Of a stretch of DNA of 38,333 nt, positions 2,424-21,958 are shown in pieces. This stretch comes from Oscillospiraceae bacterium. Lineage in GTDB: Bacteria; Bacillota; Clostridia; Oscillospirales; Oscillospiraceae. The notes beneath the pieces are model-generated. The model had not been told where the DNA came from and did no database searches. It saw nothing but the letters and a program-made list of their open reading frames with translations. Both the position numbers and the translations under genes were made by a program. Within the stretch, counting starts at the first letter, position 1. Each line of letters begins with the position of its first letter. The stretch is taken from assembly GCA_017522015.1 (NCBI GenBank), contig JAFXAW010000018.1:1-38333 (forward strand), given 5' to 3'.

Positions 2424-3902
2424 ATGGCAACTTACCTTGAGCCCGCAAATGAAATTAACGTGTATGCGGAATGTGACGTTCTGGTCGTCGGCGCCGGCTG
2501 CGCCGGACACAGTGCGGCAGTCGCGGCGGCGCGTGCCGGCGCCAAGCGCGTCATCCTGATGGAGCGCTACGGGTATTCCGGCGGCGACGTGACCGGTGAC
2601 TATGTTCTGATGGTGCCGAAGCTCTCTTACAAGACGCTGCCCTTCGTGCGCGGCATTCAGGAGGAGTGGTTCGAGCGCATGGAGAAGAACGCGCCCGGCT
2701 CCACCTGGGGCCCGCGTATGCAGGACATCGGCAAGCAGGACAAGGCGCTCATTCTCCGCTGGCAGCATAAGATGGACACCGTCAGCCCCAGCGACCCGAA
2801 GATGCTCGTGCGCAGCGTCTATTACGATGGACCGCAGCTTGAGATCGAGATGGACATGATGCTGCTGGAGCTGGCCGATCAGATTCAGGTGCTCTATCAC
2901 AGCTGGGGCACCCGTCCCATCATCGAGGACAATCAGATCAAGGGCGTGATCTTTGAGAGTAAAGAGGGCCGCCAGGCCGTCTTCGCCAAGGTCGTCATCG
3001 ACGCCACCGGTGACGGTGACCTTTACCGTCAGGCCGGCGTGCCCTACGAGCACCTCTCCGATCTGGACACCCGTTCCCACACCACCACCCTCGCATGGCG
3101 CGTCGGCGGCGTGGACAACGATTACCTCATCGAGTGGCGCTATAATCACCCGCAGGAGTGGAGAGCCGCCTGCGCCGAAGTCGCCAAGATGACCGGCTAC
3201 CGCAGCTCCCTGCCCGCATGGGATGAGCCGAACGGCAACTGCCTCGTCTTCAACAGCCACTATAACATGGACTGCACCAGCATCCATGACCTGACCAAGA
3301 CGGAGATGGACACCCGCAAGCACATCCGCGATATCATCGACTACTGCAAGCAGGCCATCCCGGGTGCGTACAAGGATATGTACCTGATGAGCATCGCGCC
3401 GCAGACCGGCGTGCGCTGCGGCAACCGCCTGCTCGGCGAGTACGTCATGACGCCGCGTGACTTTGCCTTTGCCACCGAGCATGACGACGTCATCGCGTGG
3501 CACTCCACCATCTGCCGCATCAACGACTGCGCGCCCGTGGAGATTCCCTATCGCTCCATCGTGCCCAAGGGCATTGACAATCTGCTCTGCCCGGGCCGTC
3601 ACTTCTCCGCCAACTCCGTCGCCATCGACTGGCTCAACCTCATCCCGCAGTGCATCGGCACCGGCCAGGCCGCCGGCGTCGCCGCGGCCATCGCCGTGGA
3701 GAAGGGCACCGGCACGCACGATGTGGACATCCGTGCCGTGCAGGATGTTCTGGTCGATCAGAACGTCCCGCTGCCGCGTAATGCGAAGGTCGACAAGTGC
3801 TACATGGAGCTCGTCAAGGAGAACGAATACGGTCTCAACAACGACCTCGCCCGCCGCGTCCGCGAGAATCCGGACGATCTGAGCGCTTACCGCCAGTATT
3901 AA
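2424..3902 (+). CDS. FAD-dependent oxidoreductase (FAD_oxidored family)
   Basis: 492 aa. The N-terminal dinucleotide-binding motif GAGCAG spans residues 23-28, followed by the acidic strand end RVILME. The second FAD-contact motif, IDATGDGDL, is at about residues 192-200. The C-terminal block GVRCGNRLLGEYVM and the GxAAGVAAA helix are typical of this flavoprotein family, which resembles fumarate-reductase and thiazole-synthase type folds. There is no signal peptide and no heme motif, so it should be cytoplasmic. GGAGGAAG precedes the ATG. It is monocistronic, with its own promoter and a strong terminator. The substrate is unknown; related proteins occur in anaerobic catabolic clusters of gut bacteria, so an electron-transfer or dehydrogenation step on a small organic molecule is inferred. 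Confidence 0.85.
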   Translation: MATYLEPANEINVYAECDVLVVGAGCAGHSAAVAAARAGAKRVILMERYGYSGGDVTGDYVLMVPKLSYKTLPFVRGIQEEWFERMEKNAPGSTWGPRMQDIGKQDKALILRWQHKMDTVSPSDPKMLVRSVYYDGPQLEIEMDMMLLELADQIQVLYHSWGTRPIIEDNQIKGVIFESKEGRQAVFAKVVIDATGDGDLYRQAGVPYEHLSDLDTRSHTTTLAWRVGGVDNDYLIEWRYNHPQEWRAACAEVAKMTGYRSSLPAWDEPNGNCLVFNSHYNMDCTSIHDLTKTEMDTRKHIRDIIDYCKQAIPGAYKDMYLMSIAPQTGVRCGNRLLGEYVMTPRDFAFATEHDDVIAWHSTICRINDCAPVEIPYRSIVPKGIDNLLCPGRHFSANSVAIDWLNLIPQCIGTGQAAGVAAAIAVEKGTGTHDVDIRAVQDVLVDQNVPLPRNAKVDKCYMELVKENEYGLNNDLARRVRENPDDLSAYRQY

Positions 3903-3960
3903 ACCCCTCGCGGCTTTCAAGCCTTGCAGACCCTGTGCCTGCAGGTAAAAAAGAAAAGAA

Positions 3961-3997
3961 AGAGCATTCTCCGGGGAATCGGAGAATGCTCTTTTTG
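3961..3997. terminator. Bidirectional intrinsic terminator
   Basis: Perfect 12-bp stem AGAGCATTCTCC (3961-3972) and GGAGAATGCTCT (3981-3992), with T-rich tails on both strands. It ends the FAD oxidoreductase gene (plus) and the DegV gene (minus). Confidence 0.9.
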
Positions 3998-4017
3998 TAT
4001 TTTGTGTGGTCGGTTTT

Positions 4018-4908
4018 TTATTTTCCCTTGCGCGTTTCGCCCCAGAAAAACAGCGCGACGGTGCCGGGGCCGGTGTGGCTGCCGATCGTGGTGCCGATGT
4101 CGTAAATCTCAACCTGTCCGCAAAGCTTCGGGAAGCGCGCGGTGACCATCTCTGCCACGGTCTGCGCGTCCTCGAGGCAGGCCGAATGCGAGATGTAGCA
4201 CTTTCCGCTGTAATCCGCGCCATCCTGCGCGTATTGCTCCATGCGCTGCACCAGCGCTTCGATCACGCGCTTCTTTCCGCGGATGCGCGCGCGGGGGATC
4301 AGATGTCCGGGCTCGTCCATGTTCAGCAGCGGGCAGATGCCCACGATGCCGCCGAAGAAGCCCGCCGCGCGGGAGATGCGCCCGCCGCGGACATAGCTGC
4401 TCAGGTCTGTGGAGAAGAACCAGTGGTGCACGTTCAGGCGGTTGGCCTCCGTCCAGTCGGCAAGCGCATCCAGCTCCATGCCGGCGGCATATTTTTCGGC
4501 CACGCTGTCCATCAGCAGCCCGTAGCCGGAGGAGGCGCCCAGCGAGTCCACAACCCGCACCTTCCGTCCCGGAAAACGCTCCATCGCGATCAGCGAGGCA
4601 GCGGTCGCGGCGCTGAAGCTTCCGGAGAGGCCGCTGGAGAGGGAGATGTGCAGAATGTCCTTCCCCTCGCGGAGGAAGCCCTCAAAATAATCAAGATATT
4701 CGGAGACGTTGATCTGGCTGGTCTTGGTCTCCGCGCCGTCGGCCATCGCCTGATAGAACTCTGCAAACGGCATGCTCTCGCCGAGATCGTCGGGGTAATG
4801 CTTGCCGTTGAGATAGTAGTGGAAGCAGATGTAGCGGATGTTCCGGCGTTCAAAATCCTCTTTGCGCACGTCGGCCGTGGAGCAGCAGCTCAAAATATAA
4901 TCGGGCAT
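4018..4908 (-). CDS. DegV family fatty-acid-binding protein
   Basis: 296 aa, about the usual length for DegV proteins (~280-290). DegV proteins bind a fatty acid, and some members (FakB) present it to the kinase FakA for phosphorylation and phospholipid synthesis. Visible family features are the N-terminal STADV segment, the TSQIN motif, the LSSGLSGSF ligand-contact motif and the VDSLGASSGYG segment. The start is fixed by AAGGAGG about 9 bases upstream. It is convergent with the FAD oxidoreductase. No FakA-like kinase is in the window, so its partner must lie elsewhere. A weak promoter-like pair (TTGCTC-18-TAGACT, minus strand, 4939-4968) lies upstream. Confidence 0.88.
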   Translation of the reverse strand: MPDYILSCCSTADVRKEDFERRNIRYICFHYYLNGKHYPDDLGESMPFAEFYQAMADGAETKTSQINVSEYLDYFEGFLREGKDILHISLSSGLSGSFSAATAASLIAMERFPGRKVRVVDSLGASSGYGLLMDSVAEKYAAGMELDALADWTEANRLNVHHWFFSTDLSSYVRGGRISRAAGFFGGIVGICPLLNMDEPGHLIPRARIRGKKRVIEALVQRMEQYAQDGADYSGKCYISHSACLEDAQTVAEMVTARFPKLCGQVEIYDIGTTIGSHTGPGTVALFFWGETRKGK

Positions 4909-5012
4909 GGGTTGTGACCTCCTTGTTATGCTGGGAAGAGTCTATCCCATGCCCGGCGCAAAGAGCAAGCTACTCCCGCCTCCGGCCGGTCTACGATGCG
5001 GGAAAAAAGCAA

Positions 5013-5036
5013 TAGAGCCCGCTTTTGCGGGCTCTA
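5013..5036 (-). terminator. Intrinsic terminator of the XRE regulator
   Basis: 10-bp perfect stem (TAGAGCCCGC at 5013-5022, GCGGGCTCTA at 5027-5036). A T-rich tail on the minus strand (complement of 5001-5012) ends the gene at 5052-5651. Confidence 0.85.
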
Positions 5037-12035: not shown

Positions 12036-12869
12036 ATGGATAAGAGAAAAAGATGGTACAGAAAATGGGATCTCGACGTCAGCCGTGAGACCGTGGAGAA
12101 AGTCGTTGCCGAGTGCAGCACGCCGGATAAATACGCCAGGGGCGGCGGCATTTTGAACGGCCCCTACACGCCTCCCGATTCCGAGGACCTCATCGGCAAA
12201 ACCCTTGTTTTCCGCAGCGAGGGCGTGGAGATGACCTTTGAAATCACGGGCATCAACGAGCTGATCTTCTCCGAGAACGGCGGCGAGAAAAAGACCTGCT
12301 TTACCAAGGTCAAAACGCTCAACCATGAGATTTATCTGATTAACCAGCTCATCCCCGGCTACACCATGTCGCGCCAGATCTCCCTCGTGGTGGACATGGT
12401 CAGCGGCTACGCCACGGTCTGCGACGCGCACTTCGGCACGCCCTATTCCAGCATTGATGTCGAGCGCAGCTTCATCTTCGGCCGTCTGGACGGCGACTTC
12501 CAGCCCGGTGAGATGCACCACTTCACCTCCGAGCTCGTTGGCAGAGCGATCGAGTGGAAGTACAGCGATAAGATCATGCTCATCAAGCACATGTACACCT
12601 CCGATTTGTATTACACCTATTCCGCCGCCGCACCGAACGGCGCGTGGATGGCCACGAACCCCGCGGACTATGTGAAGGTGCGCGATAACACCTTCATCTT
12701 CTCCTTCGTGGAGGAGCGTCAGGCCGGATTGCAGGGCTTCTTCGTGATCGACACGGATCTGATGCACGACATGGGCGTGTTCTACGGCTGCAGCGCCGAT
12801 CACATCTCCAGCAACTGCGTCGGCGCTATCGGACATTGGGCCGACTGCACCACCGTCTTCGATAAGTAA
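12036..12869 (+). CDS. MoaF-related (lipocalin-like) protein
   Basis: 277 aa. Two lipocalin-like repeats fit the MoaF N- and C-terminal domains: residues ~52-135 (LIGKTLVFRSEG onward) and ~165-275 (ELVGRAIEWKYSDK, IKHMYTSDLYYTYS, then ADYVKVRDNTFIFSFVEE). MoaF was first seen in a monoamine-utilisation regulon and its reaction is not established. Phenolic acid decarboxylases share the fold. GGAGGATAT lies before the ATG. It stands between the GH63-like pair and the UroD-like gene, each with its own signals, so a role in binding or converting a small aromatic or amine molecule is inferred. I see no convincing -35/-10 pair in the 121 bases upstream, so it may be read through from the GH63 pair. 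Confidence 0.75.
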   Translation: MDKRKRWYRKWDLDVSRETVEKVVAECSTPDKYARGGGILNGPYTPPDSEDLIGKTLVFRSEGVEMTFEITGINELIFSENGGEKKTCFTKVKTLNHEIYLINQLIPGYTMSRQISLVVDMVSGYATVCDAHFGTPYSSIDVERSFIFGRLDGDFQPGEMHHFTSELVGRAIEWKYSDKIMLIKHMYTSDLYYTYSAAAPNGAWMATNPADYVKVRDNTFIFSFVEERQAGLQGFFVIDTDLMHDMGVFYGCSADHISSNCVGAIGHWADCTTVFDK

Positions 12870-14326: not shown

Positions 14327-16774
14327 TTAGGACAGGCGCGCGCACAGCGCAAGGATGCGCCCCGCGCAGAGCTGCAGCTCCTCGATGGAAAGCTCGCCGC
14401 TTTCCACGCACTCGACGATGCGGTCCACGTCATCCTGCTGGCCGGGCATGATGAGGTCGTTGCCCGCGCGCACGCAGAGCATCGGGTCGCTGCAGCCGGC
14501 CATGCCCATGCTGCGGTTGAAGGCGCTGCCGGTGGTGCCCCAGTCGGTCATCACAACGCCCTCAAAGCCCCACTCGCCGCGCAGGATCGTCTCAAGCAGT
14601 GCCTGGTTGTTCGCGCTGTGCACGCCGTTGATGAGGTTATACGAGGTCATCACCGACATGGGCGCGGACTCCTTCACGCAGATCTCAAAGCCCTTGAGAT
14701 AAATCTCGCGCAGCGCGCGCTGCGACAGGATGCTGTTCGAGCCGAAGCGGTCGGTTTCCTGATTGTTGCAGGCAAAGTGCTTGATCGTCGCGGCGCACTT
14801 TTCGCGCTTTTGTATGCCGCGCACGACGGCAGCGGCAGTCTTGCCGGAGATCAGCGGATCCTCGGAATAATACTCAAAGTTCCGGCCGCAGAGCGGGCTG
14901 CGGTGGATGTTCATCGCGGGCGCAAGCCAGAGGTTGACGCCGAAGCGCTGCATCTCCTCCGCGACGATGTCGCCGCATTCTTCCTGCAGCGCGGCGTTCC
15001 AGCTCTGCGCCAGCGCCGTGCCGATCGGGATTGCCGCGGCGTAGTGATAGAGAATCTCTCCGCGCTCCTGCGCGCGGCGCTCGTTCTCGATCTGCTGAGC
15101 CTGCAGCGCCTCCCACTCCTCCGGGGACATGAGATCCTTAAACCAGATGCTGGAATTCAGGTCGAGATTGATCGCGCCGCTTTCAACCTCGAAATAGCGC
15201 TTGTTCACGCGCACACCGGCCGGGCCGTCCGCCATGACCAGCTTGCCGAAGCCCTTTTCCTCCGCGATGTCGGCCGTTTCGCCCGCCGCGCCCGAGACGC
15301 GGGCGGAGGCGTTGCCGATGACGGAAAGCTCGCCGCCGGCGCGGTATTTTCCGGCGCAGATCGTTGCAAGCTCCCGCACCGTGAAGTCGGAAAGCTCGGG
15401 AAGATTCAGCTTCTCGCCCGCGATGCGCGCGCGGTCAAAATGTCCGGCGTTTTGCAGAACCGCGGCGTCCACCGCGAGGCGCGGCAGATTTTCCGGAACG
15501 CTGCGCTGCTTTTCGCCCTGCCAGTCCGCAAAGTCGGCATCGCCGCAGGCGTGGCTGAGATGCGCGGTGTAAACGCTCTGTGTGAGGCTTGCGATTCCGG
15601 CGGGGATGCCGTTGACGCTCAAAACATAGTCGCCGGCCTCCAGCAGCCATGCATCCTCGGCGCTGTCCCAGCTCGCCATGTCCTCCAGCGGCAGCCTGAG
15701 CGTAAAGCTCTCCTGCTCGCCCGGAAGCAGCTCGGCGGTCTTCTGATAGGCGCCCAGCTCGCGCAGCGGCTTAGGAAGCTTTCCGGCGGGCGCGCTGTAA
15801 TAGAGCTGCAGCGTCTCGCGCCCGGCGTATGCGCCGGTGTTGCGCACCGTGACGGTCACGGCGGCTGTCTTGTCCTCCACGGCAAAGCCCGTGACGCTTG
15901 TTTCAAAATCCGTGTAGCCAAGGCCATAGCCGAAGGGAAAAATCGGCTCTACGCCCGCTGCGTCGTAATAGCGGTAGCCGACGAACACGCCCTCGCGGTA
16001 GCGCGCGTCGCCGTGCAGGCCGAAATCGCCGAGGCTGGGATAATCCTCCGCCTTCGCCCAGGTCGTTGCGAGCTTTCCGGAGGGATAGGCCTTGCCGAGC
16101 AGAAGGTCGGCAAACACATCGCCGGTGACGGAGCCGAGCTGGCTGAGCAGCAGCACGTTTTCCACATGGGGCAGTACCTCGCTGATGTCCACAGGGCCGC
16201 CGACGTTGAGCACGAGCATGAATTTTTTGTATTTCTCCGCGCAGGCGAGGATGTCGCGCTTTTCATCCTCGGTGAGCAGCAGGTCGCCCGCGGCGGCGTG
16301 GCGATCCGCGCCCTCGCCGGAGTCGCGCGAGAGGACGTAAATGCCCACTTCGCCCGCGCCGTCGATCGGCGCGGCATACTGCGGCGCAGGCGGAACGCGC
16401 CCCATGCTGACCATGAAATAGGACCGTCCGGTGGCCTTCGCCTCCGCGACCAGCTCTGCCTCGAATTTCACGGCAATCTCCGCGCGGAGCGCTGCGCAGC
16501 CGCGCAGCCATTCCTTCGTCGTGACGGTGAAGCCGGCGTTTTCCAGCCCCTCCTCCACCGTGGTGTAGTGCCGGACGTTTACGTTGCCGGAGCCGGTGCC
16601 GCCCTTGATCGTCTCCCGCGCGCCCGCGCCGTAGAGCGCGACCGCACAGGGGGCGTTCAGCGGGAAGTCTCCGTTCTTTTTCAGCAGCACCGCGCATTCC
16701 GGGGCGAGCGCGCGCAGCGCGGCGTAATGCGCTTTTTCAAAGGGTTGAACAGCGTCCGTGCTGACTTTGACCAT
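14327..16774 (-). CDS. GH3 beta-glycosidase with permuted domain order
   Basis: 815 aa. The order is reversed relative to classical GH3: the alpha/beta sandwich (GH3 C) domain comes first (~residues 5-290, with SGEGADR and E154 as candidate acid/base), then a fibronectin-III-like segment (~300-420), then the TIM barrel (GH3 N) last (~480-815). The barrel carries the substrate-binding IKHF and the nucleophile motif VVMTDWG with D744. This arrangement is known for some rumen and gut beta-glucosidases. GGxGxGxV near the N-terminus (KGGTGSGNV) supports the sandwich domain. There is no signal peptide, so it should act on imported glycosides or cellodextrins. AGGAGGAA lies upstream of the ATG at 16774. 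It has a single-gene unit and its own promoter, back to back with the ABC importer promoter. Confidence 0.9.
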   Translation of the reverse strand: MVKVSTDAVQPFEKAHYAALRALAPECAVLLKKNGDFPLNAPCAVALYGAGARETIKGGTGSGNVNVRHYTTVEEGLENAGFTVTTKEWLRGCAALRAEIAVKFEAELVAEAKATGRSYFMVSMGRVPPAPQYAAPIDGAGEVGIYVLSRDSGEGADRHAAAGDLLLTEDEKRDILACAEKYKKFMLVLNVGGPVDISEVLPHVENVLLLSQLGSVTGDVFADLLLGKAYPSGKLATTWAKAEDYPSLGDFGLHGDARYREGVFVGYRYYDAAGVEPIFPFGYGLGYTDFETSVTGFAVEDKTAAVTVTVRNTGAYAGRETLQLYYSAPAGKLPKPLRELGAYQKTAELLPGEQESFTLRLPLEDMASWDSAEDAWLLEAGDYVLSVNGIPAGIASLTQSVYTAHLSHACGDADFADWQGEKQRSVPENLPRLAVDAAVLQNAGHFDRARIAGEKLNLPELSDFTVRELATICAGKYRAGGELSVIGNASARVSGAAGETADIAEEKGFGKLVMADGPAGVRVNKRYFEVESGAINLDLNSSIWFKDLMSPEEWEALQAQQIENERRAQERGEILYHYAAAIPIGTALAQSWNAALQEECGDIVAEEMQRFGVNLWLAPAMNIHRSPLCGRNFEYYSEDPLISGKTAAAVVRGIQKREKCAATIKHFACNNQETDRFGSNSILSQRALREIYLKGFEICVKESAPMSVMTSYNLINGVHSANNQALLETILRGEWGFEGVVMTDWGTTGSAFNRSMGMAGCSDPMLCVRAGNDLIMPGQQDDVDRIVECVESGELSIEELQLCAGRILALCARLS

Positions 16775-16819: not shown

Positions 16820-16848
16820 ATTATATTCCGGGAGACTTTCCCCGTCAA
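16820..16848 (-). promoter_or_regulatory. Promoter of the GH3 gene
   Basis: On the minus strand, TTGACG (16843-16848), 17-base spacer, TATAAT (16820-16825), about 45 bases before the ATG. It is divergent from the importer promoter, whose -35 starts only 18 bases away. Confidence 0.85.
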
Positions 16849-16865
16849 CGAAAATCGCCTCGCTC

Positions 16866-16894
16866 TTGACAAGTCCGCGCGCGGCGGATATAAT
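16866..16894 (+). promoter_or_regulatory. Promoter of the FecCD-type importer operon
   Basis: TTGACA (16866-16871), 17-base spacer, TATAAT (16889-16894): a consensus promoter. The expected start of transcription, about 16901, coincides with the first paired base of the structured leader. Confidence 0.88.
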
Positions 16895-16900
16895 AAGCCA

Positions 16901-17148
16901 AACTCCATAACGAGCAACACTTTGTTCGAGCCCGCCCAGCCTAAAGAGCCGTTTGCCGGCTTCATGGCGCCCGGGCCAAAGCGGACGGATTTGTCCGCTT
17001 TCAGAGTTGGATGTGGAAACGCACCGGCTTTCCGTGATTGAGAAGGACAAAGGCTTCACTGCGGCAAAAGATGCCGCAGTTGTATTGCATATCTGCAATT
17101 TTTGCCTGTTCACGGTCTGCTTCGCGTTTCGCGGGGCAGACTTTTTTT
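16901..17148 (+). promoter_or_regulatory. Structured 5' leader RNA, candidate riboswitch or attenuator, class not recognised
   Basis: From the predicted transcription start the leader can fold as follows. P1 (AACTC 16901-16905 with GAGTT 17004-17008) closes a four-way junction. P2 is CGAGCAA/TTGTTCG (16911-16917, 16922-16928). P3 is GCCCG/CGGGC (16930-16934, 16972-16976) with an inner AGCCG/CGGCT (16947-16951, 16957-16961). P4 is AAAGCGGAC/GTCCGCTTT (16978-16986, 16993-17001). Directly after it comes a hairpin with a GAAA tetraloop and one bulged A (17009-17025). Then follow ACTGCGGC/GCCGCAGT (17058-17065, 17073-17080) and ATTGCA/TGCAAT (17084-17089, 17094-17099), and finally an intrinsic terminator at 17115-17148. 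Promoter, folded domain and terminator before a metal-type ABC importer is the standard layout of a transcriptional riboswitch. I see no cobalamin or TPP box; a molybdenum/tungsten-cofactor (Moco) type or an undescribed class are possibilities. Base pairing was judged by eye. Confidence 0.65.
17115..17148 (+). terminator. Leader terminator (attenuator) before the ABC importer
   Basis: 12-bp stem GTCTGCTTCGCG (17115-17126) with CGCGGGGCAGAC (17130-17141), including two G-T pairs, a three-base loop and seven T. It ends 27 bases before the permease start codon, so it must be bypassed for the operon to be expressed. Confidence 0.9.
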
Positions 17149-17175
17149 ATGTATTTGATGTGTGTTGAGGTGTCT

Positions 17176-18237
17176 ATGACGAAACGGAAAAAAGAGAAAA
17201 GAGCCGTGCATTACAGCTATCGCTTCGCCATTCTGGCGGCGGCATTCGTGCTGGTGTTTTTGGGCTCGTTTGTCGTCGGGCGCTATGCGGTGTCGCCCGG
17301 CAGCCTGCTGAAGATTCTGATCTCGCGGCTCATGGAGCTCGTCAGCTTCGGAAAATGGTCGCTGGTGCAGACATGGACGCAGCGCGAGGAGCTGGTCGTG
17401 CTGTCCATCCGCTTCCCGCGGATCGTCTGCGCGGCGCTGGTGGGCGCGGCGCTCTCCGCAGCGGGCGTGTCCTATCAGGGCATGTTCAAAAACCCGATGG
17501 TATCGCCCGACCTGATGGGCGCGTCCACGGGTGCGGGCTTCGGCGCGGCGCTTGCGATTCTGCTCTCGCTGGGCTACCTGGGCATCACGGTCAGCGCCTT
17601 CGCGTTCGGCCTCGTTGCCGTGCTGCTTGCCTACTGCGTCAGCCGCTTCAGCCGGTTCAAGGCCTCCATGGCGCTCATCCTTGCGGGCGTGATGATCTCC
17701 TCGCTGTTCTCCGCGTGCACTTCTTTTGTCAAGCTCGTCGCGGACACGACGGAGCAGCTGCCCGCCATCACCTATTGGCTCATGGGCTCGCTCAGTTCCG
17801 TGAAGATGGTCGACCTGAAGTTCGCCTTCTGGCCGATTCTGGTCGGTGCCGTGCCCCTCGTGCTGCTGCGCTGGCGCATGAATCTGCTCACGCTCAGCGA
17901 GGCCGAGGCCCGCAGCATGGGCATCCACACCGGAAGACTTCGCCTTGTTGTCATCCTCTGCGCGACGCTGATGACCTCGGCAAGCGTGGCTGTCAGCGGC
18001 ATGATCGGCTGGGTCGGGCTTGTGATTCCGCATTTTTGCCGCATGATCTTCGGCTATGACTATCGCCGCCTCATCCCGGCGTCCCTGCTCATGGGCGGCA
18101 CTTTCCTGATGATCGTGGACGATATCGCCCGAAACATCGCAGCAAGCGAAATTCCCCTCGGCATTCTGACCTCTTTTGTCGGCGCGCCGGTGTTTATCTA
18201 TTTGATTTTGCGGGGAGGTTTGGCCAGTGAGGATTGA
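17176..18237 (+). CDS. FecCD-family ABC importer permease
   Basis: 353 aa, matching the ~330-350 aa of BtuC/FecCD permeases of type II importers for iron-siderophores, heme, cobalamin or metal oxyanions. After a basic N-terminus (MTKRKKEKRA) about nine to ten membrane segments follow. Family motifs are RFPRIVCAALVGAALSAAGVSYQGMFKNPM and GLVIPHFCRMIFGYDYRRLIP; the latter is the ATPase-contact loop. The ATG at 17176 is chosen because GAGG lies just upstream and the family similarity begins after it; in-frame ATGs at 17149 and 17158 fall in or right after the terminator tail. The stop overlaps the ATPase start by 11 bases, so translation is coupled. Confidence 0.9.
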   Translation: MTKRKKEKRAVHYSYRFAILAAAFVLVFLGSFVVGRYAVSPGSLLKILISRLMELVSFGKWSLVQTWTQREELVVLSIRFPRIVCAALVGAALSAAGVSYQGMFKNPMVSPDLMGASTGAGFGAALAILLSLGYLGITVSAFAFGLVAVLLAYCVSRFSRFKASMALILAGVMISSLFSACTSFVKLVADTTEQLPAITYWLMGSLSSVKMVDLKFAFWPILVGAVPLVLLRWRMNLLTLSEAEARSMGIHTGRLRLVVILCATLMTSASVAVSGMIGWVGLVIPHFCRMIFGYDYRRLIPASLLMGGTFLMIVDDIARNIAASEIPLGILTSFVGAPVFIYLILRGGLASED

Positions 18238-19009
18238 AGTAAAGGATCTGCGCTTTTCTTACGGCGGTGCCGAGGTGCTGCATGGGATAAGCTTCGCCGC
18301 CGGTGCAGGTGATGTTGTGGCGGTGCTGGGTCCCAACGGCGTGGGAAAAAGTACGCTGTTTCGCTGCCTGCTGGGTTTTCTCCGCCCCCGCAGCGGCCAA
18401 ATCCTGCTGGATGGGAAGAATATCCGGAGCATGGATCATCAGGAGCTTGCGCGGCAGATCGCCTATATCCCCCAAAGCGCCGCGCCCGCTTTTAACTACA
18501 CGGTGCTCGACAGCGTGCTCATGGGCATGACGAGTCAGATCGGCGTGTTTTCCTCCCCGACGGCGGCGCATCGGGAAAAGGCGATGGAGGCGCTGGAAAG
18601 CCTCGGCATCGCGCATCTGGCAAATCGCGGCTGCGGCAGAATCAGCGGCGGCGAGAAGCAGATGATGCTTTTGGCGCGTGCGCTTGTGCAGGACGCGAAA
18701 ATTCTCATCATGGACGAGCCCACCGCAAGCCTCGATTACGGCAACAGCTTCCGCGTGATGCGGCGGATTGAAACGCTGGGCGAGGCGGGCTATACGGTCA
18801 TCTTCTCCACGCACGAGCCCAATCAGGCCTTCCGCTACGCAAGCCGCGTTTTGGCGCTGCGAGACGGCCGCCTTCTGGCCGACGGCCGCCCGGCAGAGGT
18901 GCTCCATGAGGACACCCTCTCCGCGCTCTACGGCATCGGCGTTGCCGTGCGATGCGCGGAGGTGGACGGCATGAATTACAGCATTTCCATTCCGAAAGGA
19001 GAAAAATAA
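18227..19009 (+). CDS. FecE-type ABC importer ATPase
   Basis: 260 aa. Walker A GPNGVGKST (residues 35-43), Q-loop YIPQSA, signature ISGGEKQ, Walker B ILIMDEPTAS and the switch histidine in STHEP are all present, so it is an active-looking ATPase. It starts at a GTG with GGGGAGG upstream, inside the end of the permease gene. It drives the importer made of the flanking permease and lipoprotein. As in other FecE/BtuD systems, two copies would pair with two permeases. Confidence 0.92.
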   Translation: MRIEVKDLRFSYGGAEVLHGISFAAGAGDVVAVLGPNGVGKSTLFRCLLGFLRPRSGQILLDGKNIRSMDHQELARQIAYIPQSAAPAFNYTVLDSVLMGMTSQIGVFSSPTAAHREKAMEALESLGIAHLANRGCGRISGGEKQMMLLARALVQDAKILIMDEPTASLDYGNSFRVMRRIETLGEAGYTVIFSTHEPNQAFRYASRVLALRDGRLLADGRPAEVLHEDTLSALYGIGVAVRCAEVDGMNYSISIPKGEK

Positions 19010-19010
19010 A

Positions 19011-20177
19011 ATGAAAAAAATCATCAGTCTGTTGCTGGCACTGCTGCTTGTGTTCGGACTTTTGTCCGGCTGCGCGGGGAACAGTCCGGAAAGCGGAAAA
19101 AACGGGGAAGACGCCAAGCCCAACGCCGGCTCTGACGCCGGGCAGACCGGGGAAGAGAACGGCTCCGGCGCGCAGCAGAGCGGGGAAGCCGAAACCGTGA
19201 TTTTCACCGACTCCGTCGGACGCGAGGTGGAGCTGCCCGCCAACATCACGCGCATCGCGCCCTCCGGCTCCGTGGCCACGATGATTTTGGCGGCCATCGC
19301 GCCGGAATATCTGGTCTGCGTCGGCAGCACGCAGGAGGAGACCCAGCGCGGCTATCTGGCGGACAATCTGTTTGCGGTGCCGGTGACGGGTCAGCTCTAC
19401 GGCGGCAAGAGCACGCTCAATCTGGAGGAACTGCTCAGTTGTGACCCGCAGGTCATCATCGACCTCGGTGACGTCAAAGGCGATGTAAAGGGCGACATGG
19501 ACGCGCTGCAGGAGCAGACGGGCATCCCCTGCGTGTTCATCGAAGCGGATTTGGCGCACATGGCGCAGGCCTTCCGGATGCTCGGTGAACTGCTGGACGA
19601 AAAGGAAGCGCGTGCGGAAGAGCTTGCCGCGTTTTTGGACAGGACGCTGACCATGGCGGAGGAAAATTCCGCCAAAATCCCCGAGAGTGAGCGCCTGCGC
19701 GTCATGCTCACCGCCGGCAGCGCGGGCCTCGGCACGGACGCCGCCGGAAGTGTGCAGGCGCAGGTGCTGGACATCGTCGGCGCGGAAAACGCCATCGAGC
19801 TGGGTGACATCAACAACAAAAGCGGCGGCAACGAGATCAACATGGAGCAGCTCTATCTCTTTGACCCGGACGTGATTTTGTTCATGCCCAACAGCATCTA
19901 TGGCGAGGTCGGCAGCGACGTGCAGTGGCAGGAGCTGGAAGCCGTCCGCGCCGGGCGCTATTACGAGGTGCCGAGCCTGCCCTATAACTGGATGAGCAAC
20001 CCGCCGTCGATGAACATGGTGCTCGGCATCTGGTGGCTGGGCAACCTGCTCTATCCCGAAGTGTATGACTATGACATGGCGGAGGTCACGCAGGAGATCT
20101 TCGAGCTGTTCTGGAACTGTACGCTCACGGAGGCGCAGCTGCACTCTCTGCTTGAGAATTCCAGCCTGAAACAGTAA
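19011..20177 (+). CDS. Periplasmic-binding lipoprotein of the FecCD importer (FecB/BtuF fold)
   Basis: 388 aa. Signal peptide with lipobox LLSGC (C about residue 21), then a linker rich in G, N, E and S, then a FecB/BtuF/MolA-type binding domain starting at VIFTDSVGREVELP. It is anchored outside the cytoplasmic membrane and hands the ligand to the permease. The C-terminal segment SLPYNWMSNPPSMNMVLGIWWLGNLLYP resembles the class annotated for molybdate/tungstate or metal-chelate binding (MolA-like) more than siderophore binders; this is a recollection-based judgement, not a search. It begins one base after the ATPase stop, with AAAGGAG upstream. Confidence 0.88.
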   Translation: MKKIISLLLALLLVFGLLSGCAGNSPESGKNGEDAKPNAGSDAGQTGEENGSGAQQSGEAETVIFTDSVGREVELPANITRIAPSGSVATMILAAIAPEYLVCVGSTQEETQRGYLADNLFAVPVTGQLYGGKSTLNLEELLSCDPQVIIDLGDVKGDVKGDMDALQEQTGIPCVFIEADLAHMAQAFRMLGELLDEKEARAEELAAFLDRTLTMAEENSAKIPESERLRVMLTAGSAGLGTDAAGSVQAQVLDIVGAENAIELGDINNKSGGNEINMEQLYLFDPDVILFMPNSIYGEVGSDVQWQELEAVRAGRYYEVPSLPYNWMSNPPSMNMVLGIWWLGNLLYPEVYDYDMAEVTQEIFELFWNCTLTEAQLHSLLENSSLKQ

Positions 20178-20286: not shown

Positions 20287-21009
20287 ATGTTTTTTGAATG
20301 GAACGAACAGATCCTGCAATGGCTTTTGGACGCCTCGGACTACACGGGCTATAACAAAAAGCTGGCAGCCATGCTGCGCAGATATATCACCCCGGGCGGC
20401 ACGCTCTGTGACATGGGCTGCGGCATGGCGCTGGTGGATTTTGAGCTTGCGCCCATGGTGCGCGAGCTTACCTGCGTGGACATCAGCCCCTTTGCCATCT
20501 CCTTTGTGGAGGCGGAGGCGCGCCGCCGGAAGCTGGATTCGCTGCGCGCGCTGTGCTGCGACGGGCAGCAGGCGGACGGGGAGTGGGACACCGTCATGGC
20601 GCTGTTCCACGGTACGGTGGAGCTGATCTGCGAGGGCTATCTGCGCCGCGCGAAAAAGCAGTTCATCCTCGTCACCCACGGCGCGCCCGAGGGGCAGACC
20701 GGGCCGGAGGGCTATCGCGTGCGCAAATGTGATGACGTGAAAAGCACCGCCGCGTGGCTGGAGTCCAAGGGTCTGCGCTATGAGCTGGAGCGCGGCTCAC
20801 TGGAGTTCGGACAGCCGCACCGGAGCTTTGCCGACGCGCTGGAGTACACCCGCGCGTTCAGCCGCAAGGCGCCGGAGGAACTGCTCGAGGCGCACGTGCG
20901 CAGCAAAATCACGCAGACGGGGCGCGCGGATTTCCCGCTTTACACGCCGAAAACGCGCGATTTTGGCATTTTTGTCATTCGGAGAGAGGATAATGCAAAT
21001 TTCTTCTGA
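20287..21009 (+). CDS. Class I SAM-dependent methyltransferase
   Basis: 240 aa. The SAM-binding motif I is LCDMGCGMALVDFEL (~residues 40-54), followed by the acidic motif II end VDISP. The C-terminal half (LVTHGAPEGQTGPEG, then SLEFGQPHRSFADALEYTRAF) is not one I can tie to a known substrate. The ATG at 20287 has GGGAGAAAC upstream. It overlaps the NTPase-NUDIX gene by 17 bases, so the two products are made together. Placement right after a metal-type importer suggests it modifies the imported ligand or a cofactor (inference). Confidence 0.82.
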   Translation: MFFEWNEQILQWLLDASDYTGYNKKLAAMLRRYITPGGTLCDMGCGMALVDFELAPMVRELTCVDISPFAISFVEAEARRRKLDSLRALCCDGQQADGEWDTVMALFHGTVELICEGYLRRAKKQFILVTHGAPEGQTGPEGYRVRKCDDVKSTAAWLESKGLRYELERGSLEFGQPHRSFADALEYTRAFSRKAPEELLEAHVRSKITQTGRADFPLYTPKTRDFGIFVIRREDNANFF

Positions 21010-21958
21010 GCGCGCCGACAACAAAATTCACATTTTTCTGACGGGCGGCATTCAGGTTGGCAAGTCCACCATGCTGCGCCGCCTGCTTGCGGAGTTTCCC
21101 GCCGTGCCCTGTGCCGGCTTTCGCACCGTCACCGGCCCGGGGCCGGAGGGCAGCATCGGCGCTGTGTATCTTGTGCCCGCGGATGGGGAAACGCTGTTCC
21201 TGCCGGAGCGCAAGGTGGGTCTGCGTTTGGGTCATGCGCGCGGGATCGAGTCCTTTCCCGCCGCTTTTGACGAATTTGGCACAGCTTGTATCGAAGCGCC
21301 CGGCAGGCTGATTCTGATGGATGAGATCGGACGTATGGAGCGCGAAGCCCCGCGCTTTTCGGAGGCCGTGCTGCGGCGGCTGGACGGCGACACGCCCATC
21401 CTCGGCGTTTTGCAGGGCCGCGCGGATACGCCTCTGGCGAATGCCATCCGCTGCCATGAGAAGGTGCTGCTCGCGGAGGTAACGCCGGAAAACCGCGAGG
21501 AAGTTTTCGCGCAGCTCCTGCGCAAAATGCGCTGGCAGATGAAGCGCTTTGTTGATTCCGCGGGCGCTGTTGTGTTCCGTGAGCACGAGGGGAAAACGCA
21601 GGTGCTGATGATCTGCTCCAAGCATAAAAGCTGGGGCTTCCCGAAAGGCCATATCGAGCGCGGGGAGGACCCCGCAGGCGCCGCGCGGCGTGAGGTTTTG
21701 GAGGAGACGGGCATCCGGATCGAACTTCTGTCCGAGCACGGCTTTGCAGCTGACGCAGCACTCTTGCGGGAGTCGCGGCAGATTCACTATTTCCCGGCCC
21801 TCGTGCGCAGCGGAACGCTCAGCCCGCAGCCGGGCGAGGTGCGCGCCGCGGAGTGGCAGGATGCAGAGCGCGTGAAGGAGCTTTTGTATTTCCGCGAGGA
21901 TGTCGAGCCCTTTGAATGGGCGCTGCAGCAGTATCGGGCGCGGACGGGAAGAAGCTGA
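20993..21958 (+). CDS. THEP1-type nucleoside-triphosphatase fused to a NUDIX hydrolase
   Basis: 321 aa. Residues ~12-180 are a THEP1 (NTPase_1) P-loop domain: Walker A GGIQVGKST (18-26) and the Walker B type motif LILMDEIGRME with D110-E111. Residues ~188-320 are a NUDIX domain with a complete box, G219-x5-E225-x7-R233-E-V-L-E-E-T-G-I. THEP1 enzymes hydrolyse NTPs; NUDIX enzymes cut nucleoside diphosphates linked to another group. The fusion could clear or activate a nucleotide-linked cofactor (inference). GGAGAGAGG precedes the ATG, which lies inside the end of the methyltransferase gene. Nothing follows on this strand. Confidence 0.88.
   Translation: MQISSERADNKIHIFLTGGIQVGKSTMLRRLLAEFPAVPCAGFRTVTGPGPEGSIGAVYLVPADGETLFLPERKVGLRLGHARGIESFPAAFDEFGTACIEAPGRLILMDEIGRMEREAPRFSEAVLRRLDGDTPILGVLQGRADTPLANAIRCHEKVLLAEVTPENREEVFAQLLRKMRWQMKRFVDSAGAVVFREHEGKTQVLMICSKHKSWGFPKGHIERGEDPAGAARREVLEETGIRIELLSEHGFAADAALLRESRQIHYFPALVRSGTLSPQPGEVRAAEWQDAERVKELLYFREDVEPFEWALQQYRARTGRS

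What the first reader, a model, noticed from the sequence alone, without database searches (positions are those of the whole stretch)
16895..17175. Candidate riboswitch of unassigned class controlling a metal-type ABC importer
A consensus promoter places the transcription start at about 16901, exactly where a P1 helix (AACTC/GAGTT) begins. That helix can close a four-way junction with three further helices, including a 9-bp P4. A GAAA-capped hairpin with a bulged A follows, then two more hairpins, then a strong intrinsic terminator 27 bases before the permease ATG. This layout is that of a transcriptional riboswitch or attenuator. The downstream genes (FecCD importer, methyltransferase, NTPase-NUDIX) suggest a metal, metal oxyanion or cofactor ligand. 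I do not see cobalamin or TPP signatures. A Moco/Tuco-type aptamer is the main known alternative that I cannot exclude by eye.
Basis: partly seen in the sequence, partly recalled or inferred. Interest (0 to 1): 0.85.

Follow-up and report, generated by a model that had tools for sequence, protein, structure and literature searches.

The report
Moco riboswitch on candidate cofactor importer
The RNA switch is of a known type that senses the molybdenum cofactor, but it sits on an importer in a bacterium that has molybdenum enzymes and appears unable to make that cofactor, which suggests the importer brings in the finished cofactor, an uptake route that I did not find described for bacteria.

Summary
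The leader is a real riboswitch of a known class: 16913-17062 matches RF01055 (Moco riboswitch) at 50.4 bits against a cutoff of 36, between a perfect promoter and a strong terminator. What it controls is more interesting. The host genome has two bis-MGD-type molybdoenzymes and a MobA homologue, but no detectable MoaA, MoaC or MoeA; a congener lacks MoaA and MoeA. Of 56 family genomes with the riboswitch, 22 have it at a FecCD-type importer; ten of these lack MoaA, eight also MoeA. My best reading: it switches off an importer of molybdopterin or Moco in Moco auxotrophs. Against: the permease is closest to the molybdate importer MolB; 12 MoaA+ genomes carry the same pair; 71 of 150 family genomes lack MoaA anyway; three carriers show no molybdoenzyme of the one family searched; nearly all assemblies are in several contigs. 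Ligand and substrate are untested.

The parts
16866..16894 (+). sigma-70-type promoter, TTGACA-17-TATAAT; start of transcription expected near 16901
   Evidence: 12 of 12 consensus matches; unchanged in the congener G368
16913..17062 (+). Moco riboswitch aptamer, RF01055
   Evidence: 50.4 bits, gathering score 36, model 1-135 of 135
16920..17052 (+). P1: 16920-16927 paired with 17045-17052 (8 pairs, one G-U)
   Evidence: fold of the 16901-17056 transcript; Rfam alignment
16930..16976 (+). P2 with CCUAA...AUGG internal loop (tetraloop receptor position of the family)
   Evidence: Rfam alignment, fold
16978..17001 (+). P3, 10-bp hairpin; its presence marks the 'Moco' rather than the P3-less 'Tuco' subtype of Regulski 2008
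   Evidence: fold; outer pair A-U here is G-C in G368; subtype rule read in PMC2408646 section 11
17003..17031 (+). P4 with GAAA tetraloop 17016-17019 and bulged A 17011
17058..17099 (+). two expression-platform hairpins (17058-17080, 17084-17099)
   Evidence: fold
17114..17148 (+). intrinsic terminator and T-run
   Evidence: 13 pairs, 8 G-C, loop 3
17176..18237 (+). FecCD-type permease
   Evidence: PF01032 E 5.6e-84; profile of 11 relatives best matches HI1471/MolB in the PDB
18227..19009 (+). ABC ATPase
   Evidence: PF00005 E 3.5e-34
19011..20177 (+). substrate-binding lipoprotein, Peripla_BP_2
   Evidence: PF01497 E 9.8e-18; AlphaFold model pLDDT 87.6, Foldseek best 4pag, MolA 3psa rank 7
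20287..21009 (+). class I SAM methyltransferase (ATG 20287 chosen by eye against a homologue)
   Evidence: weak Pfam methyltransferase matches; tblastn matches in 27 of 80 related loci
20993..21958 (+). NTPase_1 domain fused to NUDIX hydrolase
   Evidence: PF03266 E 2.8e-22, PF00293 E 2.7e-20; tblastn matches in 22 of 80 related loci

Best explanation
The leader is a Moco riboswitch (RF01055) that works as a transcriptional OFF switch. When cofactor is plentiful, the aptamer holds P1 and P4 and the terminator forms; when cofactor is scarce, alternative pairings let polymerase read into the operon. The operon encodes a type II (FecCD-type) ABC importer whose most likely cargo in this organism is molybdopterin or Moco itself (perhaps dephosphorylated), because the genome has molybdoenzymes and MobA but no detectable MoaA, MoaC or MoeA. 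MobA would then attach GMP to the imported cofactor; the methyltransferase and the NTPase-NUDIX protein would process it. Shown: aptamer match, promoter, terminator, operon, and no match for three synthesis families in the assembly held. Inferred: ligand, direction of the switch, substrate, roles of the last two genes.
For: RNA: RF01055 50.4 bits. Switch: P1-formed and free folds of the leader are close (-104.3 and -106.7 kcal/mol), and GAAACGC 17016-17022 can pair with GCGUUUC 17124-17130 in the terminator, the best fold at transcript ends 17130-17134. Auxotrophy: MoaA (PF06463), MoaC (PF01967) and MoeA (PF03453) gave no match in the host, MoaA and MoeA none in the congener G368, while each family rang in 11 of 14 control genomes. 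Need: two Molybdopterin + Molydop_binding proteins with Fe-S neighbours and a MobA homologue, E 1.6e-25, on a contig syntenic with a 39-kb contig of G368. Pattern: 22 of 56 riboswitch genomes have a FecCD or binding-protein homologue at the riboswitch; ten lack MoaA, eight of these also MoeA, at 91-99% completeness. Seven of the ten have PF00384 and clear MobA; G339 has 11 PF00384 matches. Among PF00384+ genomes, a close binding protein is found in 13 of 22 without MoaA against 16 of 51 with it (p 0.04). In G314 the riboswitch leads a MobA-kinase fusion followed by FecCD-ATPase-SBP.
Against: Permease relatives match the molybdate/tungstate importer MolB best (2e-96, against 3e-48 for BtuC), and the binding protein resembles MolA distantly. 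12 of 41 MoaA+ riboswitch genomes also have riboswitch-FecCD, several beside riboswitch-ModABC. MoaA- genomes are common: 71 of 150 in the family, and 47 of 97 of the more complete ones, so 10 of 18 carriers without MoaA is near the base rate. The contrast with other riboswitch genomes (2 of 21, p 0.004) is partly built in, because there the riboswitch often stands on the moa/moe/mod genes themselves. Close binding proteins (E < 1e-100) are not clearly enriched in MoaA- genomes (20 of 71 against 17 of 79). G252, G369 and G371 carry the pair but no PF00384 and no clear MobA; other molybdoenzyme families were searched in the host only (PF01314, no match) or not at all. In G296 tblastn saw a 30-residue MoaA-like stretch beside moeA, so its MoaA may be broken or missed. 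9 of 20 MoaA- genomes with a close binding protein have no riboswitch match. At full length the antiterminator fold is 10 kcal/mol weaker than the terminator fold. The host assembly is 91% complete, and the genomes are related.
Confidence: 0.55

Rival explanations
1. The operon is a MolBCA-type molybdate or tungstate importer, and the missing Moco genes are assembly gaps. A Moco riboswitch on a molybdate importer would then be the ordinary arrangement.
For: Permease best PDB match HI1471/MolB; MolA among the structural neighbours; molybdate uptake by MolBC-A reported, with low affinity (passages of PMC4031551); riboswitches on modAB are common here (29 of 118 contexts); host 91% complete; 12 MoaA+ genomes have the same pair.
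Against: MoaA and MoeA are missing also in G368 (94% complete) and in G252, G314, G339, G346, G369, G371 (95-99% complete), all with riboswitch-FecCD; joint loss by gaps in eight assemblies is unlikely. A methyltransferase and an NTPase-NUDIX protein are not expected for an oxyanion (inference).
Confidence: 0.29
2. The importer brings in metal-free molybdopterin or a precursor, and metal is inserted inside by MoeA or another enzyme.
For: G296 and G348 lack a MoaA match but keep MoeA, and in G348 a riboswitch leads SBP, MoeA and MobB.
Against: The window's genome and seven other FecCD carriers have no MoeA match, so metal insertion would need an unknown enzyme there.
Confidence: 0.1
3. The enzymes of this genome do not use Moco, or Moco is made by an unknown route, and the importer serves another compound.
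For: Zhang et al. 2018 (passages of PMC6147048) proposed new biosynthetic components or Mo-independent forms for 'orphan' molybdoproteins.
Against: The genome keeps a Moco riboswitch and a MobA homologue, which make little sense without Moco.
Confidence: 0.06

Closest known systems
Moco riboswitch, RF01055 (Regulski et al. 2008, PMC2408646)
   Same: Whole model matched; helix layout, GAAA tetraloop on P4, P3 present; terminator platform as in some published members (passage)
   Different: Stands before a FecCD-type importer in a genome without detectable MoaA, MoaC or MoeA; 'FecCD' occurs nowhere in that paper's main text (its supplement was not seen)
MolBCA (HI1470-1472) molybdate/tungstate importer
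   Same: Type II ABC importer; permease is the nearest solved relative by sequence profile
   Different: Binding protein only distantly similar to MolA (20% identity in the structural alignment); operon has methyltransferase and NTPase-NUDIX genes and a Moco riboswitch; host seems unable to use molybdate for Moco
BtuCDF vitamin B12 importer and its riboswitch
   Same: Cofactor riboswitch that controls a FecCD-family importer in organisms that need not make the cofactor (what it would work like; the B12 comparison is recalled, not looked up)
   Different: Different riboswitch class; B12 transport by BtuCDF is proven, Moco transport here is not

Membership tests
RF01055 Moco riboswitch | score above the curated gathering score over the whole model | tested here: met
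   50.4 against 36 bits, model 1-135
RF01055 Moco riboswitch | P1 closing helix, P2 with receptor bulge, P4 with GAAA tetraloop | tested here: met
   alignment, folds; in an alignment of 42 sequences that I picked, 18 of 21 predicted pairs have at least one sequence changed on both sides with the pair kept
RF01055 Moco riboswitch | P3 present (Moco subtype) | tested here: met
   10-bp hairpin 16978-17001
RF01055 Moco riboswitch | binds Moco and controls expression | not testable with these tools
MolBCA molybdate importer | FecCD permease, ATPase and class III binding protein related to HI1471/HI1470/HI1472 | tested here: met
   permease and binding protein; the ATPase was tested only as a generic ABC ATPase
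MolBCA molybdate importer | transports molybdate or tungstate | not testable with these tools
MolBCA molybdate importer | host can use molybdate for Moco (MoaA, MoaC, MoeA) | tested here: not met
   no match in the held assembly, 91% complete; points to a different cargo, does not exclude family membership by descent
Moco uptake system (proposed) | carrier has molybdoenzymes but cannot make Moco | tested here: inconclusive
   met for the host by the PF00384, MobA, MoaA, MoaC and MoeA searches; for G252, G369, G371 no PF00384 found and other molybdoenzyme families not searched

The most novel reading that the evidence does not exclude
This operon is a bacterial uptake system for molybdenum cofactor: a Moco-riboswitch-controlled type II ABC importer that makes Moco a shared, vitamin-like nutrient in anaerobic communities. 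Its partner enzymes re-activate the imported cofactor: MobA adds GMP, a kinase fused to MobA (G314, G380) or the NTPase_1 protein restores the phosphate, and the NUDIX domain cleaves dinucleotides. G380, with no MoaA or MoeA match, may use a second, unrelated small membrane transporter under the same riboswitch.
Probability: 0.48. Interest if true: 0.88.

Novelty: new variant of a known kind. Interest (0 to 1): 0.7.

Why it matters
The abstract of PMC9793310 (seen in passages) states as the prevailing view that cells which need Moco make it themselves, with C. elegans as an apparent exception. A survey of Mo use (PMC6147048, passages) found several hundred organisms with only part of the trait, most of them with molybdoproteins but no complete Moco pathway, and offered unknown synthesis genes, Mo-independent enzymes or unsequenced genes as reasons. 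A riboswitch-controlled importer in such genomes would turn that puzzle into a testable one, give a candidate for a bacterial Moco importer (I know of none described), and add Moco to the cofactors exchanged among anaerobes. It also offers a natural case in which a riboswitch would sense a cofactor that comes from outside.

Tried and rejected
An unassigned riboswitch class was rejected. No other Rfam family matched the leader: with an E-value cut of 1, 16860-17200 gave one match, RF01055. A tungsten (Tuco) reading is less likely because P3 is present and no AOR (PF01314) was found in the host, but the P3 rule is a published correlation. A simple claim that the importer marks auxotrophs was rejected: close binding-protein relatives (E < 1e-100) occur in 20 of 71 MoaA- and 17 of 79 MoaA+ genomes.

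A regular expression for the aptamer missed sites that the covariance model found. Riboswitch alignment A3 was discarded because loci from the genome search are not re-oriented; A4 replaced it. RNAalifold on A4 recovered P1, P2 and P4 but not P3. The first membrane protein of the G380 operon looked to me like an ECF S component, but Pfam gave only a sub-threshold match to an unrelated family, so this is only a lead. PDB sequence searches for the methyltransferase and the NTPase-NUDIX protein gave generic matches. The tree of 58 binding proteins (quick method) shows riboswitch carriers clustered but not one clade (10 changes against 19 in shuffles). Contexts of two of 120 riboswitch matches (G357:C31, G352:C55, both under the cutoff) were not fetched; G352 was counted among 'other' MoaA+ genomes. 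Scans of 150 genomes with RF01055 used stricter filters that lose weak matches, so 'no riboswitch' is provisional. The MobA search rang at E <= 0.001 in 14 of 14 controls and 20 of 20 genomes and passed the curated cutoff in none of the 20; I called it clear at E < 1e-18 (16 of 20 genomes), above a gap down to 1e-9. That the four 150-genome scans drew the same genomes is judged from their handles.

Full report
WHAT IS THERE. The stretch holds a perfect promoter (TTGACA, 17 bases, TATAAT; 16866-16894) and a strong terminator (17114-17142) on the + strand. The leader folds better than any of 200 dinucleotide shuffles (z -4.51). Rfam assigns 16913-17062 to RF01055, the Moco riboswitch, at 50.4 bits against a gathering score of 36, E 2.6e-9 over the 38-kb window, with the whole model aligned. 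It is the only RF01055 match in the host genome (the control search rang in 2 of 14 genomes). The family's landmarks are present: P1 (16920-16927/17045-17052), P2 with the CCUAA...AUGG internal loop, a 10-bp P3, and P4 with a GAAA loop.

SUPPORT FROM RELATIVES. RF01055 matches at E <= 0.001 occur in 56 of 150 genomes of the same family, 55 of them over the cutoff. In an alignment of 42 sequences that I picked (most from this family, some from its order), 18 of 21 predicted pairs have at least one sequence changed on both sides with the pair kept. In the congener G368 the aptamer is nearly unchanged, the outer pair of P3 is G-C instead of A-U, and promoter and terminator stem are unchanged.

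HOW IT MAY SWITCH. Folds of the leader free and with P1 forced differ by 2.4 kcal/mol (-106.7, -104.3). The 5' strand of P1 can pair upstream (16911-16917 with 16922-16928) and the 3' strand can pair downstream. GAAACGC (17016-17022, the P4 loop and start of its 3' strand) can pair with GCGUUUC (17124-17130) in the terminator. Of the transcript ends tried, this fold is the best at 17130, 17131 and 17134 and no longer at 17137; at 17148 it is 10 kcal/mol weaker than the terminator fold. An OFF switch fits: cofactor-bound aptamer, terminator forms. This is computed for one leader and is a hypothesis.

THE OPERON. FecCD permease, ABC ATPase, Peripla_BP_2 lipoprotein, SAM methyltransferase, NTPase_1-NUDIX fusion. 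By sequence profile the permease relatives match HI1471/MolB first (E 2e-96), then haem, hydroxamate and B12 permeases. The binding protein model (pLDDT 87.6) matches 4pag first and MolA at rank 7. So by descent this is a type II importer near MolBCA.

THE HOST. The held assembly (1.87 Mb, 49 contigs, 91% complete) has no match for MoaA, MoaC or MoeA; each family rang in 11 of 14 control genomes. MoaC was searched in the host only. The host has two large proteins with Molybdopterin and Molydop_binding domains and adjacent Fe-S proteins, and no AOR (control 5 of 14). It has a MobA homologue, below the curated cutoff like all 20 genomes of that search but well apart from the background (90 bits, E 1.6e-25), on a 4.6-kb contig that is 93.5% identical over 4.57 kb to a 39-kb contig of G368. 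So the apparent state is: enzymes and the nucleotide-adding step present, synthesis absent.

THE PATTERN. I compared the stretch behind 118 of 120 riboswitch matches in 55 of 56 genomes with the window's operon and E. coli Mo proteins: 24 contexts have a FecCD or binding-protein homologue (at least 45% identity, within 3.2 kb), 29 modAB, 24 moe/moa/mob, 41 other or unassigned; some stretches are short because contigs end. The 24 lie in 22 genomes. A MoaA match is missing in 10 of these 22 and in 5 of the other 34 (p 0.015); at 90% completeness or more, in 10 of 18 and 2 of 21 (p 0.004). This contrast is partly built in, since the other riboswitches often stand on moa, moe or mod genes, and MoaA is missing in 71 of 150 family genomes anyway. 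The ten are G000, G252, G296, G314, G339, G346, G348, G368, G369, G371; G296 and G348 keep MoeA and the other eight lack it. G296 shows a 30-residue MoaA-like stretch beside moeA. PF00384 is found in 7 of the ten (not G252, G369, G371), and MobA is clear in the same 7 and not in those three. G339 has 11 PF00384 matches. A test free of the riboswitch: among PF00384+ genomes a close binding protein is found in 13 of 22 without and 16 of 51 with MoaA (p 0.04). In G314 the riboswitch leads a MobA-APH kinase fusion, then FecCD, ATPase and binding protein. In G339 a second riboswitch leads homologues of the window's methyltransferase and NTPase alone. G380, without MoaA or MoeA matches and without a close binding protein, has a riboswitch before an unassigned membrane protein and an APH kinase-MobA fusion.

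WIDER VIEW. Of 80 named loci with the nearest binding-protein relatives (80 of 450 confirmed candidates were kept by the tool), 17 carry the riboswitch by my model. I gave 15 of these 17 to Rfam and it confirmed all 15; L114 and L118 and the 63 loci without a model match were not given to it. In 15 of 17 the riboswitch precedes transporter genes (by up to 2.6 kb); in L120 and L126 it lies behind the binding-protein gene. One is a Chloroflexi assembly (L152). At least seven of the 17 share contig lengths with family handles and are not independent. Methyltransferase matches are in 27 of 80 and NTPase matches in 22 of 80 loci, so the gene set is wider than the riboswitch link.

AGAINST. 12 MoaA+ genomes have riboswitch-FecCD, several with riboswitch-ModABC as well. 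Close binding proteins as such are not clearly enriched in MoaA- genomes (20 of 71 against 17 of 79). Nine of 20 MoaA- genomes with a close binding protein have no riboswitch match; I gave the surroundings of the gene in 8 of the 9 to Rfam, which found none. Completeness values and kinship limit the statistics. Only one molybdoenzyme family was searched across the family genomes, and its matches were checked for further domains in the host only.

PRINT. Regulski et al. 2008 (PMC2408646; outline with abstract, sections 11 and 12, and passages) describe the class and its link to molybdate transport, synthesis and enzyme genes. In the held open-access library, terms for Moco uptake, transport or import are in 5 papers (4 listed) and terms for Moco auxotrophy, salvage or exogenous Moco in one; the relevant one concerns C. 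elegans (PMC9793310, passages). Broader searches (in most only part of the hits was listed) I judged by title and start of abstract, and saw no bacterial Moco importer. Subscription papers and preprints are not held, so absence from print is not shown.

VERDICT. RNA: known class, about 0.97. Moco or molybdopterin import by this operon: about 0.55, with a molybdate importer plus assembly gaps as the chief rival.

Noticed in passing
window 12036-12869: Protein matching Pfam MoaF (N and C domains). As I recall, the name comes from a monoamine regulon and not from molybdenum; it should not be taken as a Moco gene.
   Followed up: no
L109 (G380:C15) 2804-5014: Moco riboswitch followed by an unassigned 217-aa membrane protein, a small protein with a sub-threshold Oxidored_molyb match, and an APH kinase-MobA fusion, in a genome without MoaA and MoeA matches: possibly a second kind of Moco transporter.
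   Followed up: partly
L099 (G314:C53) 3041-4261: MobA fused to an APH-type kinase as first gene behind a Moco riboswitch; the order of domains is reversed in G380.
   Followed up: partly
L188, L163, L173, L175, L135, L137, L138: FecCD-ATPase-methyltransferase-binding protein (and often NTPase) cassette in Sphaerochaeta, Fusibacter, Christensenella, Lachnospiraceae and Bacillus loci without a riboswitch match; a ModE-like stretch lies upstream in L188.
   Followed up: partly
G367 and G379: Nine RF01055 matches in each genome, a large apparent Moco regulon; closely spaced pairs of aptamers in G367:C4 and G361:C239.
   Followed up: no
window 16820-16848 (-): A second near-consensus promoter (11 of 12) points the other way, toward the glycoside hydrolase 3 gene 14327-16774.
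   Followed up: no
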